Shown here one piece after another: positions 12,573-22,989 of a stretch of 23,670 nt of DNA. A model generated the notes under the pieces. It searched no databases. It was given only the letters and a program-made list of their open reading frames with translations, and had not been told where the DNA came from. Numbering within the stretch: position 1 is the first letter of the stretch; the number at the start of each line of letters is the position of its first letter. The DNA lies in IMG/VR virus record IMGVR_UViG_3300031772_000287, positions 1 to 23,670 of that record. One strand, written 5' to 3'. The position numbers were made by a program, and so were the translations under genes. The DNA comes from a virus.

Positions 12573-14424
12573 ATATATTAAAAATAAGCTTCAAAAAGCA
12601 CATTTGCTGCCGGAGGATTTAAAACAAAATCTTTTTCGTGAAGCCGAAGCTTTGTCATTATTAGGAGTATCTTCAGATAATGATTATAAAGATGCTTTTT
12701 ATATTAGTTTACATGCTAAAAAGATAGCAGAAGAGCTTTCTGGCAAACAGCTTGATAATAATGAATTAGCTAAGGTTTCTGCTGCTATAATGCAAAATAG
12801 AGAGAAATACCCAATTCATACTATTTTAAATTTTTATCTTGCTGCGGCCAATGCATTAAAAGAAGTTGAAATACCTATTAAGAAAATCGCATATCCTCAA
12901 AGCGATGCTGGCCAATATTTTCCTTCGCCATATAATAGAACAAAATGGATGAATGCAATGAGGGCAGTCTATGCTAATTCTGTAAACATGGATCGTACTC
13001 AGGCTTTTGAACTTGTAACCAAAAATTGGGAAAAGATGGAAAAAGATAACTTTAAACACTGGATGTTATTTTATGAGCAAAACACTCATAATAAATATAA
13101 AACAGCTCAGAGGGGCAATAGATATATGGAAGTGGGAGAGGGCGCCTTTTTACCACTTGATGTCAATAATTTAAAAGCATCAATTCCAATGCCAAACATG
13201 AGTGCTTACGAAGATCCTGCGCCACAAATACAACAACAGCAACAGCAGTCTGAAAAAGATAAACAAGAATTTGCTCAAAGAGAAATTATTGCTTTAATTG
13301 GTAGATTAAATTCTGCGGAAAGAATAGCTACAAAAACAGAAGCTGTGCGCAATGTATTAGGTCCAGAAGGCTTTAAAACATGGCTTAATGCTTTGCATAC
13401 TATTAAGCGTGAGATTCAGACTGCTCCAATTATGAATATCAGATCTTCGACCCCAAGAGATTTGATTATAAAACAAGCTAACATATTGGTTTCGAAGGGA
13501 CATTTAGAACCAGCTCGATTAATGATGGTTCTTGCTCAAGTAGCCCCTCCTCCATTGGAAGTGGCACCAGGAGGGCCACCACCAGCGGAAGTGGCTCCAG
13601 GGATGCCAGGTGACCCAGGTTTGGGGATGGGAACTGAGCCAACTCCTGATATGTCTTCTATGCCTGACATGGGATCCGGAGGCGAAAGTGAAAGTGATAG
13701 TCCAGAAGCTGCGATGAAAGAATTTTTAAAAGGATTATCTGGCGATTCATACTCTGATGAAAAAGACGAAAATAAAAGTGATGATGATAATGATGACACT
13801 AATGATGCTAATGATTTATTAGTCACTGAAGACGATCTTATAGCTACTGCTCAAGCAGCTGATGCTCCTGTTGCGCCTGCTGCTCCAGTATCATCAATAC
13901 CAGAGCATTTTTCTAGCGACGAAATTGAGCAAGCGCTTAAGAATGTTACAATTGAAACTGTAATTGAAAAATTGGAAGCGCTTGCTAAAATTTATGGTAA
14001 TCGCGAATTGGCAAGACAGCTCAACATTGTAGATTTAATGTTAGGCAGACTTGGTTTAGCAACTTACTTTCCAAATCTTGCAGAAGCAATGCGTTCGGCA
14101 TTAGATTCAAATCAATACGTATTGACTCGCGTTGAAGAAATTCTAGCTAAGTTAAAAAGCTCAACGGAAGGTACCGGACAACAAATTAGTTTAGCTCCTA
14201 CTGAGCCAGGAAAAGATGTATATGGACCAGATATTATGGGAATTAAATCGAAATTAGAAACGGATAAAGAAAAAGATAAAGCGCGAAAAGAAAAGCGCAA
14301 AGTTATGCAAGAAGCAGAAGATGTCGCTAAAACCACCCCTGCTCCTACCGCCCCAATAGCTCCGGCACAAGAATTGGCTGTTCCGGCAACAGTAGAGCCT
14401 GCGTCAACCAATGCTAGGATATAA
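12565..14424 (+). CDS. Long protein with Gln-, Pro- and Asp-rich linkers, probable virion-associated
   Basis: About 619 aa from ATG 12565; another ATG directly before it at 12562 is closer to AGGAAG (12554-12559), so 12565 has the better spacing. Helical N-terminal domain (1-180) with a conserved-looking core SPYNRTKWMNAM, then MEKDNFKHWMLFYEQNTHNK. A Gln run lies at about 223-229. A second helical domain follows (235-325), then a Pro/Gly/Met linker (328-372) and a Ser/Asp/Glu-rich stretch (373-416). A third helical domain covers 440-530, and the tail is Lys-rich then Pro/Ala-rich. No catalytic motif is seen. The domain-and-linker build fits a structural or scaffolding protein. The family is not recognised. 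Confidence 0.85.
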   Translation: MNEYIKNKLQKAHLLPEDLKQNLFREAEALSLLGVSSDNDYKDAFYISLHAKKIAEELSGKQLDNNELAKVSAAIMQNREKYPIHTILNFYLAAANALKEVEIPIKKIAYPQSDAGQYFPSPYNRTKWMNAMRAVYANSVNMDRTQAFELVTKNWEKMEKDNFKHWMLFYEQNTHNKYKTAQRGNRYMEVGEGAFLPLDVNNLKASIPMPNMSAYEDPAPQIQQQQQQSEKDKQEFAQREIIALIGRLNSAERIATKTEAVRNVLGPEGFKTWLNALHTIKREIQTAPIMNIRSSTPRDLIIKQANILVSKGHLEPARLMMVLAQVAPPPLEVAPGGPPPAEVAPGMPGDPGLGMGTEPTPDMSSMPDMGSGGESESDSPEAAMKEFLKGLSGDSYSDEKDENKSDDDNDDTNDANDLLVTEDDLIATAQAADAPVAPAAPVSSIPEHFSSDEIEQALKNVTIETVIEKLEALAKIYGNRELARQLNIVDLMLGRLGLATYFPNLAEAMRSALDSNQYVLTRVEEILAKLKSSTEGTGQQISLAPTEPGKDVYGPDIMGIKSKLETDKEKDKARKEKRKVMQEAEDVAKTTPAPTAPIAPAQELAVPATVEPASTNARI

Positions 14425-15167
14425 TGAAACTTCGAGAGGTGCTTAATCTTATTGCGCAAATTGCAAAGGAAAACGACTTATCTGAGCCGTTTATTGTAGG
14501 AGGTGTGCCTAGAGATAAGGTAATAGGCAGATTAAGCCAGCTTGTTGATTTGGATGTTTCTACAGGTGATGATGGCAGCAAATTCCTTGGCAAAGAATTA
14601 TCTCTGAGAATAAAAGCTCCATATAAGTTAATGCCAGATGGTCATTCACAAGTATTATTAGGCAATTTTAAAATAGATTTTTCGTCAAATTTTAATATTC
14701 CAGGTATTGATGGAATGTTAAAAAGAGCAGGAATGAAAAATCCTACTGATTTGCAGTTAGAGCAATATAGTAGAGATTTTACGTGCAACTCATTAATACT
14801 TACAATAGATTTGAAAACCATCAAGGATCCATTAGGAAGCGGAATAAAAGATATTAAAAAAAATCTTATCAGAACTTGTTTGCCAGCTTCTATTACATTA
14901 GGATATGATAACAAAAGAGTTGTTCGTGTTTTGTATCTTGCGGCCAAGCTTGGATTCAAGATTGATGATGATATTATTAAATGGATAAAAGCTCATCCGG
15001 AAAGTATAGGAAATGCTACTAATGAGTATGTAGTTAAGAAATTGAATAAAGCTTTTCAGGCTAACGAATCTCGCACGATTCAACTAATGAATGAATTGAA
15101 TTTGTGGCCACATGTTCCTTCTGTACCAAGTATTACTGAATATATGGTAAAGGCCAAGAGGATTTGA
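14424..15167 (+). CDS. CCA-adding enzyme / poly(A) polymerase-type nucleotidyltransferase
   Basis: 247 aa with the class II tRNA-nucleotidyltransferase head. It has FIVGGVPRD (23-31, the GG motif), DLDVSTG (42-48, first two metal-binding aspartates), KIDF (third acidic residue, D85), RDFTCNSL (117-124), DPLGSGIKDI (135-144), IRTC (149-152) and RVVRVLYLAAKLGF (165-178). The family adds nucleotides to RNA 3' ends, either CCA to tRNA or poly(A) tails. Bacterial members are about 400 aa; this one keeps head and neck but lacks most of the body and tail that select the tRNA, so the substrate is open. It overlaps the upstream gene by one base and its stop overlaps the ART start (TGATG), inside a run of virion-type genes. 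Confidence 0.87.
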   Translation: MKLREVLNLIAQIAKENDLSEPFIVGGVPRDKVIGRLSQLVDLDVSTGDDGSKFLGKELSLRIKAPYKLMPDGHSQVLLGNFKIDFSSNFNIPGIDGMLKRAGMKNPTDLQLEQYSRDFTCNSLILTIDLKTIKDPLGSGIKDIKKNLIRTCLPASITLGYDNKRVVRVLYLAAKLGFKIDDDIIKWIKAHPESIGNATNEYVVKKLNKAFQANESRTIQLMNELNLWPHVPSVPSITEYMVKAKRI

Positions 15168-16267
15168 TGCCTAAAAATATGGATAAAAAAATTGTTAGAC
15201 TTGCAATCGTTAGAAATAATACCGAGGACTCTTGTCCTTTCGGATTGAATATTCCTTATGGATGCAAGAATGCTGGCGATTTAATTACTAAGATGGCTCC
15301 TTTAGATTCATTAGGAGACGAAGCGAGCAAAGAAGAAAAAGACGATATCGCTAAGGCTAATAACCGTTTTTTCATGTGGCATAATCCCGGAGAACGTTGT
15401 TTTTATGCTGGAAAATTATTTGTGGACAAACCTACGGTGGAGTGTAATTGGCACAGTAATGCTCCCGGAATTACTGAAAAAGGAATTCTTGGAGCGCCAT
15501 TTTATTCTAAAGTATATAATAATATTGGGTTAGACGGAGTAAATTCATTTCCATTAGGATATTATGGAGACAATGATATTAGTCGCAATATGTATTATGG
15601 GCTTTATTCATTAATGGGTAGTAAACAAAATATTAATTTAATTAAAACAGCTCTTGCTACAAAAAATAAAAAGCCTGAAGCTCCAAAACATGGCCCATTC
15701 GGAGAATATGCCTGGTCTTCAAAACGAGAAGCTGTTCCAGAAGAAGATGATGTCGAAATAGAAAAACAAATATACGAACAATTACGCAAACATTTTCTTA
15801 CATATAATAGAGAAGGTTTACCAGAAATGACAGCCTTATTTTTATCTATGTTAATGGAACTTGGATGGTATAAAAATATTTTACATAAACCTGCACACAA
15901 AATATTATATCGTGGAATGAAAATAAATTCCAAAAAACAATTAGCCGATATATTAAATTTAGATGAAAAAGAACTGTCTGATAATGGCAGTAAAGATTTT
16001 GAGGAAGGCATTAGCATTCCTCCGACTAATGGATATTCTACCTCTTGGTCATTTAAAAAACATGTCAGTAAAGAGTTTTCTAATAAAGGAAAAAGAGGAT
16101 TTGCCGTTACTTTAATTGCCGAAGTGTCCGAAAATCCAAATAAATTTCTTGCTGGACCAGGCGGATTGTATGACGTTGAAGGAATTTCTAAGTATCATTT
16201 AGAAAAAGAGACTGTGGGTTTGGAGCCAATAAGAATAAAAAAAATAGAATGGGAACGAATAGATTAA
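15167..16267 (+). CDS. Probable ADP-ribosyltransferase (R-S-E class) with N-terminal Cys domain
   Basis: 366 aa from ATG 15167, with AGAGGA just upstream and a TGATG overlap with the nucleotidyltransferase. The C-terminal third has the three marks of R-S-E mono-ADP-ribosyltransferases in order: KILYRGM (R249), YSTSWSFKKHVSKEF (S-T-S at 291-293) and HLEKETVGLEPIRIKKIEW (E346-x-E348, then the closing strand). These enzymes move ADP-ribose from NAD+ to target proteins or nucleic acids; T4 Alt, ModA and ModB are phage examples. An ExE motif often goes with arginine targets. The N-terminal 150 residues are a different domain with C23, C33, C78 and C93 (SCPFGLNIPYGC; CFYAGKLFVDK; VECNW), probably metal-binding. 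The position among virion-type genes raises the chance of injection with the DNA, as for Alt. The motifs were read by eye only. Confidence 0.72.
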   Translation: MPKNMDKKIVRLAIVRNNTEDSCPFGLNIPYGCKNAGDLITKMAPLDSLGDEASKEEKDDIAKANNRFFMWHNPGERCFYAGKLFVDKPTVECNWHSNAPGITEKGILGAPFYSKVYNNIGLDGVNSFPLGYYGDNDISRNMYYGLYSLMGSKQNINLIKTALATKNKKPEAPKHGPFGEYAWSSKREAVPEEDDVEIEKQIYEQLRKHFLTYNREGLPEMTALFLSMLMELGWYKNILHKPAHKILYRGMKINSKKQLADILNLDEKELSDNGSKDFEEGISIPPTNGYSTSWSFKKHVSKEFSNKGKRGFAVTLIAEVSENPNKFLAGPGGLYDVEGISKYHLEKETVGLEPIRIKKIEWERID

Positions 16268-16379: not shown

Positions 16380-17324
16380 ATGAGCCTAGCCAAACTAGCA
16401 CAACAGATTTCTGATCCAGATTACTTCGTTATTGGAGATCCATCAACCGGTCATAAACCAGCTGAAATAAACAATGCTGATGAAGTTTTATACGTTGATG
16501 ATGATGAAGATGATAATGAAGATAATGATGGTAAAAAAGCAGAGCCCGTAGGTAACGGACAAGTAATAATGCAGGTTGGTGATGAAGAGCCAATGAGGCT
16601 TAATTTCGTTTTACCGAATGTTCCAGGGGCGGATAACCAGGACGAAATTGAGGATCCAGCTGAAATAGTAGTAGAAGAAGAGCCGGAATCAATCTCTGTT
16701 GAAGAACCGGATGTTTGGGATTGGCAGAAACGTGGCGGTATTTCTAAGTTCCCAACGTGGCTTCATCATATGTTTCAAAATTCTCCTCCTCATACTGGTC
16801 ATGACACAGTAGGTCTTGAGCGCATTATTGCATACCTTGGCGCTTTAGACAGAGAGATTTCAAAAGCAGTACGTTCTGATTTAAAGAGCGAGCTTGATAT
16901 GAGCCAAATTGAAACGGCTCGTAATGAAATTCAAAAAGGCTGTGATCGTTGCACTGATCGTTTAGAAAAGATTATTTCTAATAAGCGTCCAAAGAAAAAG
17001 AAGGCTCAAGCCGATGGAGAACTTGTTAAAGAAGGTCAGAAAATATCTGGTATCAAAGGCATAATGGTAACTGTCCCGCTTTTAATTTCCAGAATTGCCA
17101 GAGTTTGTATAAATGGCATGGTATCTGGAGGTCACGATATTGAGGATTTATTTAAAAGACAAGCTGAATTATATAAATTAACCATGAGAGAAAAAGCGGA
17201 GCTATTACAATTGTTAGAAGATTGTGGATATACTATGCGAAGAGATCGAGGCATACATCCTGATGAAGATATAGATATAAGAAGAAGTGATAATTTTGAT
17301 TGGGCCGCAAACTATCATGCATAA
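16380..17324 (+). CDS. Hypothetical protein with acidic N-terminus, 314 aa
   Basis: Good ribosome-binding site (AAAGGA, five bases before the ATG). Residues 40-50 are almost all Asp/Glu/Asn, and acidity continues to about 110. A folded domain begins near VWDWQKRGGISKFPTWLHH (112-130) and runs through a helical region with C188-x2-C191. A basic patch (NKRPKKKKAQ, 201-210) and a C-terminal helical domain with RQAELYKLTMREKAELLQLL follow. It is not recognised. It sits after the ART gene and two genes before the large terminase, so a head, connector or packaging accessory role is possible by position only. Confidence 0.82.
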   Translation: MSLAKLAQQISDPDYFVIGDPSTGHKPAEINNADEVLYVDDDEDDNEDNDGKKAEPVGNGQVIMQVGDEEPMRLNFVLPNVPGADNQDEIEDPAEIVVEEEPESISVEEPDVWDWQKRGGISKFPTWLHHMFQNSPPHTGHDTVGLERIIAYLGALDREISKAVRSDLKSELDMSQIETARNEIQKGCDRCTDRLEKIISNKRPKKKKAQADGELVKEGQKISGIKGIMVTVPLLISRIARVCINGMVSGGHDIEDLFKRQAELYKLTMREKAELLQLLEDCGYTMRRDRGIHPDEDIDIRRSDNFDWAANYHA

Positions 17325-18046: not shown

Positions 18047-19900
18047 ATGCCGGCAGTAAACCCAGCGAATAAAGACGTATTTAATCAATTTAAAGACAGC
18101 GTTCTTAACATTGACCCCGTAACTTTCTGCGAGAAGTATTTAACATTAGAAAGCCAGCCTTTCCGTTTAAGCGAAGGATACAAACCGTTCGCTGATATTT
18201 ACAGATATATTGGGCTTCGTGCAATTCAAGAGGGCGCAAAGCCAGTAATTTTGGTGAAAGGTCGTCAGGTTGGAGCAACAACCATGGCTACTGCGCTAGA
18301 AATGTATTTTATGGCGTCTGGCATTTTTGGCTGCAATGGCCGTCCTCCAATGAGGATCATTCATTGTTTCCCAAATTTAATTCACGTTTTCAGTTATGCA
18401 AAAATTAAATTGAACAATGCAATAATGGCATCTCTTTTGGTAGACGATCCATTTAAACCAGGTCGCAAGCGTTCATATATTAATCTTAAAATTGACAGTT
18501 CGTCTCCTAGCAATGACAGCTTGCAATTTAAACAATTTGTTGGCGGAAATTTCTTGCGTATTGAGTCTACCGGATTAGAAGCGGATCGTCTACGTGGTGG
18601 TACTGTAGATTGTTTATTCTATGACGAAGTTCAAGATATTCCAATTGCTGCTATTTCCAATGCTAACAAACTATTATCTCAGGCTCGTTATGGAACGGAG
18701 ACTGAAGGCGTACAAGTATATTTCGGCACGCCAAAACAAAGAGGTACTGATTATTGGAAAATGTGGAATGATTCTTCACAACAATATTTTCAATTAGGTT
18801 GCGAAAAATGTAAAAAACATTTTCCATTATATACTCCATCTTCTAATGATTGGGAGAAAGTTTGGCTATATGGGTTTATTGTAAAATGTGTTCATTGTGG
18901 TCATGAACAAGACAAACGTTCAGCAGCAGAAAGAGGTAAATGGGCAGCGCTTAACGGTAATGAAAATTGTGGATTTGTTGGTTATCATATTAATCAACTA
19001 TACATGCCAAATTTCACGAAAGAAAAGATACTATCGAAAAAACCAGAGAATAGCCCTATTGCCACAGAAAGATCTTATCAAAATGAAGTATTGGGTGAGT
19101 TTTATACTGGTGATGCCGCTCCTATTACGCCAGAAGAATTGCATGAAAAGTGTGCAGATATAGGGCGCAAAATGAGAGCGAGCATTTCTGTATCAGATAA
19201 AAAGAAAGTTTATGCAGGATTCGACTGGGGAAAGAAACAAGATGTTGAAGGTCAAGAAAAGATGGGCCAGTCTTATAGCTCAGCCGTTGTTATTACAGCG
19301 GAAGGCCCTCATTTGCTTTCTGTTCAATTTGCGACTCTATTAAGACGCAATGATTTTGAATATAAAAAGCAGTTAGTAGAACAAATGTTTCGTCAATATA
19401 GTGTTGGATTGGCGGTAGGCGATATTGGTTATGCTAATGATTTAACAGAAGTGTTACAGAAGGAATATGGTAATAGATTTTTGGCAAGCGAGGCAAAAGG
19501 AAATATGAAGAATCACGTAAAATTTGTTACTGATGAATTTCCAAATACAATTCGTTTTGATAGAGATTATTATATTGCAGATTTGTTTGATATGTTAAAA
19601 AAAGGCAATATTAGATTTCCGTATGGAGATTATGAAAAAATTTCATGGTTAATTGCGCATTGTTGCAGTATGGATATTAAAACAACGTCTGACAGATTTG
19701 GTGAGCCTATGTCTCATTATGTTAAAGGAGCAACGCCGAATGATGGATTTATGGCTTTATTGAATGCTTATTTAGCTTATAAATTTGACATAACTGGTGG
19801 TTTTAGCCAAAGCACATTAATAAATCCTAATAATGTTCGGGACGATCCAAATGCTCGCCGTGCAATTCCAGCTGTTACTGGTTATATTCCTAGAATGTAA
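18047..19900 (+). CDS. Terminase large subunit (packaging ATPase/nuclease) with zinc-binding insertion
   Basis: 617 aa; ATG 18047 follows AAAAGG. ATPase domain: Walker A-type KGRQVGATT (71-79) and Walker B DCLFYDE (188-194), then the coupling-motif-like FGTPKQRG (226-233). A four-cysteine insertion (C252-x2-C255, C281-x2-C284) with a GF-GYH-NQLYMP segment after it resembles the lambda GpA-type layout. C-terminal RNase H-fold nuclease: YAGFDWGKK (D393), AVGDIGYANDL (D459) and ATPNDGFMALLNAYLAY (D566). It pumps DNA into the prohead through the portal and cuts the concatemer. The portal gene follows 38 bases on. No intein or intron interrupts it. Confidence 0.93.
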   Translation: MPAVNPANKDVFNQFKDSVLNIDPVTFCEKYLTLESQPFRLSEGYKPFADIYRYIGLRAIQEGAKPVILVKGRQVGATTMATALEMYFMASGIFGCNGRPPMRIIHCFPNLIHVFSYAKIKLNNAIMASLLVDDPFKPGRKRSYINLKIDSSSPSNDSLQFKQFVGGNFLRIESTGLEADRLRGGTVDCLFYDEVQDIPIAAISNANKLLSQARYGTETEGVQVYFGTPKQRGTDYWKMWNDSSQQYFQLGCEKCKKHFPLYTPSSNDWEKVWLYGFIVKCVHCGHEQDKRSAAERGKWAALNGNENCGFVGYHINQLYMPNFTKEKILSKKPENSPIATERSYQNEVLGEFYTGDAAPITPEELHEKCADIGRKMRASISVSDKKKVYAGFDWGKKQDVEGQEKMGQSYSSAVVITAEGPHLLSVQFATLLRRNDFEYKKQLVEQMFRQYSVGLAVGDIGYANDLTEVLQKEYGNRFLASEAKGNMKNHVKFVTDEFPNTIRFDRDYYIADLFDMLKKGNIRFPYGDYEKISWLIAHCCSMDIKTTSDRFGEPMSHYVKGATPNDGFMALLNAYLAYKFDITGGFSQSTLINPNNVRDDPNARRAIPAVTGYIPRM

Positions 19901-19938: not shown

Positions 19939-22900
19939 ATGTCAAATTCTGATAAATTCATGCTTTCAAGAGAGGCGCCGCCTGTAATATCCCCGCAGAT
20001 GGTAAAATCTGTGAGTCAACATAGGCGATCATTATTGGAAAATGAAGTAACTGCCGGAAAATTTAGAGAAACTGCTTCTTCTCCATTTCATAATGCAGAT
20101 AATGGAACGGGGCCAACACCGGCTGGGTTCGCTACAGCAAGTTCAAGTCCAAGATTTAATAAACTTGGACAAGAGGCAGCTACATTTGGTGGTGGAGGCG
20201 GCGCGGCAGGAAGCTCAGGCACCGGATATAGAGGGTCAGGCGGGACAGTTCGGCAGGCTCCGGAAGTATATAGTCCATTATGGCTAAATTCAAATATGAA
20301 TTTGCCGCGTGATAGAGCTACCATTAATGCTTGGTCACGTTCGTTCTTTGCATTAAATCCAATGGTTCAAAATGCAATTAGCTTACATTCTACATATCCA
20401 ATTTCTAAACTTAATATAAAATGTAAAAACGAAAAAGCTAGAAAGTTTTTTGAAAACATGATTGAAGAAATTGAGTTAATGAACATTTGTGTTCAAATTG
20501 CTCAAGAATATTGGACATTAGGAGAGGCTTTTGTTTACGCAGAATTAGATGAGCGTTCTGCAAAATGGAGTCGCATATTAATACAAAATCCTGATTACAT
20601 GACTGTTAAGCGTTCTGTTATTGCTAATGAGCCTATTATTAGCTTGAGGCCAGACGAGAATCTTCGTAGAATTGTAACATCAAATAGACCCTCTGATATT
20701 CAACAGCGTCAGCAATTAGATCGTAAAATAATTGAGCACGTTCGTAGAGGCGAAAATATTCCTCTTAGCAATTTTTATGTCTCTCATTTGGCAAGAAGAA
20801 TTAGTCCTTATGAAATTCGTGGCACGGGTCTTATTGTAAGCTGTTTTAGACAGCTTATGTTATTTGATCAACTTAGAGAAAGCAAATTCGCACAAGCGGC
20901 AAATATGATAAACCCACTTACTTTAATTAAGGTTGGTGGCCCAGATTATAAGCCAAGCCCAGAAGATTTAGATAAATGGCGCGAACTGTTCGAATGTCAT
21001 GATGAGGAAACGGAAGTTTTAACAGACAAAGGTTTTAAGAAATTTGATGAAGTAATTGAATATGCTGAAGCAATGGATGGAACATACGGTCAATCATATA
21101 TTACATATTCAAAGCCAGTTAACGGAATTAAAATAGCATGTTTTAATGCAGATTCTGAACAATTAGAATATCATGAACCATCAGCGGCGCATGTATATAA
21201 TTACGATGGAGATATGTATCATTTTGAGAATGAAAAGATTGATATTAAAGTAACCCCAAATCACGGAATGTGGGTATCTAAAAAAGAATATGAATATAAT
21301 GGCCATATATCTTTAAGAAAAACATATTGGGGAGATTGGAAAAAAATTAAAGCCGAAGATATTAATTTAACAGATTATAGCAGGTTTAGATCTAAAATTA
21401 ATTGGATTGGAAATGATAATATTAAATCAATTAATGTTTGTGGTAATGAAGTTCCGGCAGAATTATATTTGGAATTTTTGGGTTATTTAATTAGTGAAGG
21501 ATGTTTATATACAAATAATAAATATAAATATACAGTTGGTATTTGTCAAGCAAAAGAAGATAATGTTATTATTATGAAAAATTGTGTGGCAAAATTTTCT
21601 ACAAATATAAACAAATCTTATTCAGAACAAATACAAAGACGTAAAAATCATAAAGATTGTTGGTCAATAATATTTTCTGGAAAAAAATTATATAATCATT
21701 TTAAAGAATGTATTGGCGATATTAATGGAAATGTTAAAGCAGAATATAAACAAGTTCCACGATGGATAATGGATTTGAGCCCAAGATTGTTGACTATATT
21801 TTTAGATGCTTTAGTAAGAGGTGACGGATCTGTTTATGATAATCCTAAAAAAGAATCAAACAGATTTGCATATTATACAACATCAAAACAATTAGCAGAA
21901 GATGTTTATGAAATAGTATATAAATGTGGTTATGTTCCAACAATGTTTGTACGTGATGATGATAAATATATTGATGGAAGAAGATTGCCGCTTTATACTT
22001 TATTATGGTCAAGTTCTGGTAATGGAGAATTTCCATTGGTATATAAAACATCAAGAAACAGTATAACAAAAGAAAAACACGAGTTATTGAAAAAAGAAAA
22101 ATATAATGGCAAAGTTTGGTGTTTTACTGTTCCTACTGGATTGTTTGTAACTAGAAGAAATGGGAAAATAACAATTCAACAAAATTCGGCTCAATATGAC
22201 AAAGACTTTAAAGTCTTCACTCATGAGGCCGTAACAGTTGAGCGTGTAGGGCATGGTCAAGGAATATATGATATTTCCGGAGATATTACTCAGCTTATAA
22301 AGGAAATGTATATAGGTCTTGTAGTACCTCAAGTATTAATGGATGGTGGGGCTGACACTTCTTATGCAAACGGCAGCGTGGCACTTGATGTTTTACGTCA
22401 GCGGTATATGCAATTTAGGAACATGTTATCAAGTTGGTTACGCAGAAAAATATTTGCTCCAATTTCAAAAGCTAATGATTTTTATGAATATGTAGATGGC
22501 GAAAAGGTTTTGATTGTACCCGAAGTAGAATGGAATCACATGTCATTATTTGATATGGGCGATTACATTGGTAACCTCACTCAATTAGTATCTGCTCAAC
22601 CGGCCAAGGTTTCTTTGCAAACGTTATACAAATCTTTAGGCCTTGAATATGACGATGAGGTCAGAAAGATTCGTAAAGAAAATATTAAGAATATGATTCA
22701 AATGAAAGAAATGGAGGCTTTGTCAAGAATGCCTCTTAATGATCTTCGTGCTCTTGGCGATGAAGATGAGATTCAAGAAGTTACCGAAACTCCATTGCCT
22801 GGCGAATCAGCATATGACGCAGCCGGAGGCATGGGAGGAGGCATGGGAGGAGGCATGGGAGGCATGGGAGGAGGTATGGGCGGAGGCATGGGCGGAGGTT

Positions 22901-22989
22901 TGGGCTTAGGCGGCCCACCAGGAGGAGGTCCGCCACCACCTATGCCAATGCCAGGAGGTATGGGAGGACCACCTGGCGGCTTAAAATAA
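19939..22989 (+). CDS. Portal protein precursor, interrupted by an intein
   Basis: 1016 aa as translated; removing the 397-residue intein (353-749) leaves a 619-aa portal. The N-extein has a Gly/Ser/Ala-rich lead (about 55-110), then a portal-type core: RATINAWSRSFFALNPMVQN, SLHSTYPISKLNIKC and LGEAFVYAELDE. The C-extein continues with VPQVLMDGGADTSYANGS, a helical region SVALDVLRQRYMQF, and the crown-side segment WNHMSLFDMGDY. The tail is a Met-Gly repeat and a Pro/Gly end. The portal forms the ring through which the terminase packs DNA and to which the tail attaches. Splicing must occur to join ELFE to SAQYDKDF. Confidence 0.9.
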   Translation: MSNSDKFMLSREAPPVISPQMVKSVSQHRRSLLENEVTAGKFRETASSPFHNADNGTGPTPAGFATASSSPRFNKLGQEAATFGGGGGAAGSSGTGYRGSGGTVRQAPEVYSPLWLNSNMNLPRDRATINAWSRSFFALNPMVQNAISLHSTYPISKLNIKCKNEKARKFFENMIEEIELMNICVQIAQEYWTLGEAFVYAELDERSAKWSRILIQNPDYMTVKRSVIANEPIISLRPDENLRRIVTSNRPSDIQQRQQLDRKIIEHVRRGENIPLSNFYVSHLARRISPYEIRGTGLIVSCFRQLMLFDQLRESKFAQAANMINPLTLIKVGGPDYKPSPEDLDKWRELFECHDEETEVLTDKGFKKFDEVIEYAEAMDGTYGQSYITYSKPVNGIKIACFNADSEQLEYHEPSAAHVYNYDGDMYHFENEKIDIKVTPNHGMWVSKKEYEYNGHISLRKTYWGDWKKIKAEDINLTDYSRFRSKINWIGNDNIKSINVCGNEVPAELYLEFLGYLISEGCLYTNNKYKYTVGICQAKEDNVIIMKNCVAKFSTNINKSYSEQIQRRKNHKDCWSIIFSGKKLYNHFKECIGDINGNVKAEYKQVPRWIMDLSPRLLTIFLDALVRGDGSVYDNPKKESNRFAYYTTSKQLAEDVYEIVYKCGYVPTMFVRDDDKYIDGRRLPLYTLLWSSSGNGEFPLVYKTSRNSITKEKHELLKKEKYNGKVWCFTVPTGLFVTRRNGKITIQQNSAQYDKDFKVFTHEAVTVERVGHGQGIYDISGDITQLIKEMYIGLVVPQVLMDGGADTSYANGSVALDVLRQRYMQFRNMLSSWLRRKIFAPISKANDFYEYVDGEKVLIVPEVEWNHMSLFDMGDYIGNLTQLVSAQPAKVSLQTLYKSLGLEYDDEVRKIRKENIKNMIQMKEMEALSRMPLNDLRALGDEDEIQEVTETPLPGESAYDAAGGMGGGMGGGMGGMGGGMGGGMGGGLGLGGPPGGGPPPPMPMPGGMGGPPGGLK
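20995..22185 (+). mobile_element. Intein with LAGLIDADG homing endonuclease in the portal gene
   Basis: 397 codons in frame, residues 353-749 of the precursor. Intein residue 1 is Cys (CHDEETEVLTDKGFKKFDEV, block A). Block B is KVTPNHGMWV with H90. Two LAGLIDADG-type helices are EFLGYLISEG (160-169) and IFLDALVRGDG (268-278), as in dodecapeptide homing endonucleases. Block F is VWCFTVPTGLFVTRRNGK. The C-terminus is Gln396-Asn397, followed by Ser as +1 residue, instead of the usual His-Asn. The DNA is more A+T-rich than the exteins (12 of 60 G+C in 21481-21540 against 20 of 60 in 20761-20820), which suggests separate acquisition. Confidence 0.93.
22825..22911 (+). repeat. 12-bp tandem repeat coding for a Met-Gly tail
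   Basis: GGAGGCATGGGA repeats exactly at 22825, 22837 and 22849, then continues in shortened and diverged copies to about 22911. It encodes the GGMGGGMGG-type stretch near the portal C-terminus. Such repeats arise by slippage and can vary in number between related phages. Confidence 0.85.

What the first reader, a model, noticed from the sequence alone, without database searches (positions are those of the whole stretch)
15167..16267. Phage ADP-ribosyltransferase with a four-cysteine N-terminal domain, encoded among virion-type genes
The C-terminal third shows the R / S-T-S / E-x-E order of R-S-E ADP-ribosyltransferases (R249, S291-T292-S293, E346-E348). The N-terminal domain carries C23, C33, C78 and C93 and is unlike T4 Alt, ModA or ModB as far as I can tell. 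If the protein is packaged, as T4 Alt is, it could modify host targets at the moment of infection.
Basis: partly seen in the sequence, partly recalled or inferred. Interest (0 to 1): 0.75.

Follow-up and report, generated by a model that had tools for sequence, protein, structure and literature searches.

The report
Phage protein with fused ADP-ribosyltransferase-like domain
A gene beside the DNA-packaging genes of an uncultured large phage joins a small four-cysteine protein, which related phages carry alone, to an extra half that looks like an enzyme attaching ADP-ribose to proteins, possibly to take over the host at infection; the enzyme assignment rests on sequence motifs and is not yet proven.

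Summary
It sits between a tRNA-nucleotidyltransferase-like gene and the terminase/portal genes. Comparison with relatives changes the picture. Residues 1-155 are a clade-conserved protein, found alone in the same slot in ten other large-phage lineages, with all four cysteines invariant. It has a Cys4 part (1-104) and a tail part (105-155); the tail part also occurs without the Cys4 part in an eleventh phage. Residues about 193-366, with R249, S291-T292-S293 and E346-x-E348, occur only in the window phage (and an identical contig). An R-S-E ADP-ribosyltransferase (ART) motif rule found only ModB and Alt among 234 T4 ORFs and nothing in 908 other phage ORFs, yet matches here. Profile comparison with T4 Mod proteins is only suggestive (rank 3 of 724, R motif alone). 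No database family matched, and AlphaFold2 gave no usable C-domain model, so the fold is untested. Best reading: a lineage-specific fusion of an ART to a packaging-cluster protein, comparable to known MuF-ART and portal-ART fusions. Virion packaging is inferred, not shown.

The parts
15167..16267 (+). Complete gene of the fusion protein, 366 aa (P0001), stop included
   Evidence: Open frame, start overlapping the upstream stop (TGATG), Shine-Dalgarno-like AAGAGGA
15167..15478 (+). Cys4 module, residues 1-104; C23, C33, C78 and C93 invariant; probable zinc or other metal site (inferred)
   Evidence: 11 distinct sequences aligned, four Cys invariant; profile finds it in all 11
15479..15631 (+). 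Tail module, residues 105-155 (PLGYYGDNDISRNMYYGLYSLMG); conserved end of the stand-alone relatives, also present without the Cys4 module in L004
   Evidence: hmmsearch over 1871 phage ORFs: all 11 plus L004:7727-8368, E 2e-5
15632..15742 (+). Linker, residues 156-192, K/P/E-rich, not conserved
   Evidence: Outside the conserved alignment
15743..16264 (+). ART-like domain, residues 193-366: YRG (R249), STS (291-293), E346-x-E348; only in this phage
   Evidence: Motif test with T4 control; absent from all relatives and collections searched
14424..15167 (+). tRNA nucleotidyltransferase-like gene immediately upstream, conserved context marker
   Evidence: PF01743 E 1.4e-9; same position in relatives
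16380..17324 (+). Conserved downstream gene g314, unknown function, context marker
   Evidence: Same position in relatives
18047..19900 (+). Terminase large subunit
   Evidence: PHROG 675 E 1.8e-61
19939..22989 (+). Portal protein carrying an intein-like insertion
   Evidence: PHROG 16240 E 1.6e-47; most relatives align only over residues 1-369 and 750 onward

Best explanation
The gene encodes a fusion. The N-terminal 155 residues are a small protein conserved in a clade of uncultured large phages, encoded in the packaging cluster (shown). This phage alone added a C-terminal domain of about 170 residues that is most likely a mono-ADP-ribosyltransferase of the R-S-E class (motif-based inference): R249 and the STS motif would hold NAD+, E348 would be the catalytic glutamate, and E346 of the ExE pair would favour arginine in a protein target, as in T4 Alt (from knowledge of the class). 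The likeliest use is that the conserved part brings the enzyme into the assembling head or portal vertex, and the enzyme enters the cell with the DNA and modifies a host protein early in infection (inferred). I put the ART fold at about 0.8 and virion delivery, given an ART, at about 0.5; the confidence below is for the fusion of an R-S-E ART to a packaging-cluster protein that acts on host proteins, by whatever timing.
For: R/STS/ExE in order with normal spacing, and a motif rule that picks ModB and Alt only among 234 T4 ORFs, none of 908 others, and this protein; 13 of 200,000 shuffles carry the strict motif; the R-motif region aligns in register with the T4 Mod profile. Conserved N-part in the same slot in relatives, four Cys invariant. 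Terminase and portal in the same gene run. Literature: about 44% of phage ARTs lie in contexts suggesting head packaging, ARTs are fused to MuF and portal proteins, and over 40% of jumbo phages encode ARTs (PMC9503650).
Against: No family or PDB sequence match. hhalign aligned only the R motif, and in the larger test two other ORFs, one a terminase, scored higher (rank 3 of 724). No homologue of the C-domain, so conservation of the catalytic residues is untestable. AlphaFold2 models unusable. No virion proteome; the N-part has no known function.
Confidence: 0.6

Rival explanations
1. An active ART that is not packaged: it is made with the late genes and acts inside the infected cell on host or phage proteins, like T4 ModA and ModB but late.
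For: No packaging evidence exists; the N-part could be a non-structural assembly or packaging factor. [quoted passage not shown]
Against: Position in the terminase/portal gene run and physical fusion to a clade-conserved packaging-cluster protein fit delivery better (PMC9503650).
Confidence: 0.3
2. The C-terminal half is not an ART; the YRG, STS and ExE motifs are coincidental in an orphan domain of another fold, perhaps a structural extension of a virion protein.
For: No profile, structure or homologue support; hhalign gives only the R motif and rank 3 of 724; no usable fold model.
Against: Motif rule is specific in T4 and silent in 908 other ORFs; motif rare in shuffles.
Confidence: 0.2
3. 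An ART-fold domain that has lost or changed activity (NAD+ binding or NAD+ hydrolysis only), kept for binding.
For: Single orphan sequence, so selection on the catalytic residues cannot be shown; the two available copies are identical over 9,649 bases.
Against: All three motif positions are intact, including both glutamates.
Confidence: 0.1

Closest known systems
T4 Alt (head-packaged mono-ADP-ribosyltransferase)
   Same: R-S-E motif order with ExE; encoded by a large-genome phage
   Different: No detectable sequence similarity beyond the R motif; different N-terminal part; Alt is not beside terminase/portal; packaging not shown here
T4 ModB / ModA
   Same: Similar domain size, LYRG-type R motif; the R region aligns in register
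   Different: Mod proteins are single-domain and not injected; only 16-22% identity in a forced alignment
MuF-ART and portal-ART fusions, polyvalent phage proteins (PMC9503650, PMC5512222)
   Same: Logic: ART fused to a protein of the head/portal/packaging set
   Different: The carrier here is not MuF or portal but a Cys4-plus-tail protein not in Pfam or PHROGs; ARTs of polyvalent proteins described in PMC5512222 have an H-Y-D active site, this one is R-S-E
Bacillus phage G
   Same: Nearest cultured relative by portal (38% over 238 residues)
   Different: No counterpart of the conserved N-part or of most packaging-cluster genes

Membership tests
R-S-E ADP-ribosyltransferases | R in strand 1, S-T/F-S motif, catalytic E in ExE or QxE, in that order | tested here: met
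   R249, S291-T292-S293, E346-x-E348; rule finds only Alt and ModB in T4
R-S-E ADP-ribosyltransferases | ART fold (split beta-sheet of two three-stranded units) | tested here: inconclusive
   Mean pLDDT 36.5 and 44.2; C-domain mostly below 50
R-S-E ADP-ribosyltransferases | Profile similarity to a known ART family | tested here: inconclusive
   No HMM match in Pfam, PHROGs, NCBIfam or PADLOC; ModA and ModB also miss Pfam; hhalign rank 3 of 724
R-S-E ADP-ribosyltransferases | Conservation of catalytic residues among homologues | not testable with these tools
   No homologue of the C-domain in viral contigs, phages, plasmids, or the related records
R-S-E ADP-ribosyltransferases | NAD+-dependent ADP-ribose transfer | not testable with these tools
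   Needs a biochemical assay
T4 Alt family / Pfam PF03496 | Match to the PF03496 profile | tested here: not met
   No PF03496 match; T4 Alt matches at 5.8e-36
Virion-packaged phage ARTs | Present in the virion and injected | not testable with these tools
   Only gene position and fusion to a clade-conserved packaging-cluster protein
MuF-ART fusions | MuF (phage Mu gp30 / SPP1 gp7) domain | tested here: not met
   No Pfam or PHROG match for the N-part in any of 11 members beyond chance level
Zinc-binding domains | Four conserved candidate metal ligands | tested here: met
   C23, C33, C78 and C93 invariant in 11 sequences; metal binding itself untested
Zinc-binding domains | The four cysteines meet at one metal site in the fold | tested here: inconclusive
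   Only residues about 41-70 were modelled with confidence

The most novel reading that the evidence does not exclude
The conserved N-part, above all its 50-residue tail module, is a virion-docking adaptor of an uncultured large-phage clade, and its gene slot is a cargo position where effectors such as an R-S-E ART are added. That would be a carrier for injected effectors separate from MuF and portal. The variable slot (ART here, a different front part in L004, another protein plus an HNH-type gene in L008) fits but does not show it.
Probability: 0.2. Interest if true: 0.65.

Novelty: new variant of a known kind. Interest (0 to 1): 0.45.

Why it matters
Head-packaged phage ARTs are an established theme, but the known carriers are few (Alt itself, MuF, portal, polyvalent proteins). 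A new carrier family with invariant cysteines, beside terminase and portal and present alone in at least ten phage lineages, gives a defined piece to test for virion targeting, and a natural with/without-ART comparison across one clade.

Tried and rejected
Sequence and HMM searches of the whole protein and of each half against Pfam, PHROGs, NCBIfam, PADLOC and PDB sequences: nothing; the N-profile's single PDB hit (cytochrome c555 trimer, E 0.0039 summed over three repeats of about 6 bits) was rejected as a repeat artefact. Homologues of the C-domain in viral contigs, cultured phages, plasmids and related records: none; three tblastn hits at E 3-8 rejected as chance. Genome-contig scans for the whole protein and for the Cys motif: none. 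PF03496 and PF18760 in the related phages: none. MAFFT of the C-domain with Mod proteins aligned the R motif but not STS and ExE, so it was not used as evidence, and no degenerate search could be built from it. AlphaFold2 alone and with ten N-part homologues: too poor for fold searches, which I did not run because low-confidence models give meaningless matches. A first hhalign control of 150 shuffles and 200 ORFs looked favourable; the larger control with 723 ORFs weakened it to rank 3, and I report the latter. Phage G as a positive motif control failed: it is said to encode at least 10 ARTs (PMC9503650), but no ORF there fits this R-S-E rule.

Full report
The window is a 23,670-base virus record, probably a fragment of a larger genome, since genes run off both ends. 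The identified genes all read on the plus strand: UvsX-like recombinase, single-strand binding protein, RuvC-like resolvase, DnaJ-like protein, primase, then a run of unknown genes, a tRNA nucleotidyltransferase-like gene, the gene in question, two unknown genes, the terminase large subunit and the portal. The gene is intact, starts one base inside the upstream stop codon (TGATG) with a Shine-Dalgarno-like AAGAGGA in front, and encodes 366 residues.

Relatives. Searching viral contigs with the terminase gave related phages at 51-63% identity, and a Cys-motif alignment and DNA pattern added more, on contigs up to 392 kb. Ten distinct phages besides the window's own carry a protein matching residues 1 to about 155 at 29-58% identity, in the same slot between the nucleotidyltransferase and g314, with terminase and portal downstream where the contig reaches that far. 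In all of them the protein ends within some 65 residues of the match and shows no ART motif. The only other copy of the full-length protein lies in an identical stretch of 9,649 bases in another contig, so it gives no independent information.

Anatomy. Alignment of 11 distinct sequences leaves C23, C33, C78 and C93 invariant, with CPFGLxIPFACKNAG as the signature. A profile of residues 105-155 (GYYxDNNxSRNxYYGxYSLxG) also finds the protein in the same slot of L004 at E 2e-5, where the Cys4 part is missing. In L008 the slot holds an HNH-type protein and another unknown protein. The slot therefore varies, and the tail part is the most widespread piece. Residues 156-192 look like a linker.

The ART-like half. 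Residues about 193-366 contain KILYRGM (R249), GYSTSWSF (S291-T292-S293), and HLEKETVGLEPIRIKKIEWE (E346-x-E348). These are the signatures of R-S-E mono-ADP-ribosyltransferases; ExE is the pattern usual in arginine-specific enzymes (general knowledge). A motif rule with spacing limits found ModB and Alt, and nothing else, among 234 T4 ORFs, missed ModA, and found nothing in 638 phage G ORFs and 270 ORFs of related loci. A stricter form occurred in 13 of 200,000 shuffles. Both rules were written after seeing the sequence. Profile comparison is weaker: hhalign against T4 Mod-family proteins aligns only the R region with any weight and ranks this domain third of 724 phage ORFs, behind a terminase. 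No library family matches, but ModA and ModB also miss Pfam, so this does not argue much either way. AlphaFold2 failed on the C-domain. I put the ART fold at about 0.8.

Function. A fusion to a protein encoded in the packaging cluster, in a phage whose relatives fall in the size class where ARTs are common and often head-packaged (over 40% of jumbo phages have ARTs; about 44% of phage ARTs lie in contexts suggesting packaging; PMC9503650), makes delivery with the DNA the likeliest use. Nothing here shows that the N-part is in the virion. The alternative of an unpackaged, late-acting ART is open.

Membership and novelty. The protein meets the motif test for R-S-E ARTs, is inconclusive on fold and profile, and fails membership in Pfam PF03496 (which holds T4 Alt) and in MuF fusions. 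It works, most likely, like T4 Alt, but is not a member of that family by sequence. The carrier is absent from the libraries searched. I rate it a new variant of a known kind, interest 0.45.

Noticed in passing
window:19939-22989: Portal gene carries an intein-like insertion of about 380 residues (from CHDEETEVLTDKGFKKF to TIQQN before SAQYDKDF). Most relatives align only outside it; L006 aligns across it at 64% identity.
   Followed up: partly
window:14424-15167: A tRNA nucleotidyltransferase-like gene (PF01743) is a fixed member of the packaging cluster in this clade; its role there is unclear, and the window has no tRNA gene.
   Followed up: partly
window:7122-8761: GIY-YIG and HNH homing-endonuclease-like genes, lower in G+C (0.27) than the neighbours, sit between a sigma-like gene and g156; relatives have GIY-YIG copies at other places in the cluster.
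   Followed up: no
L008:2732-4118 and L004:7727-8368: The slot of the fusion gene holds different proteins in these relatives: an HNH-type gene plus an unknown protein in L008, and in L004 a protein sharing only the tail module.
   Followed up: partly
L009:9971-11810: Terminase large subunit is split over two overlapping frames, suggesting a frameshift, sequencing error or programmed event.
   Followed up: no
window:4402-5779: DnaJ-like gene with a CxxCxGxG zinc region in a phage, followed by a cysteine-rich 133-aa protein.
   Followed up: no
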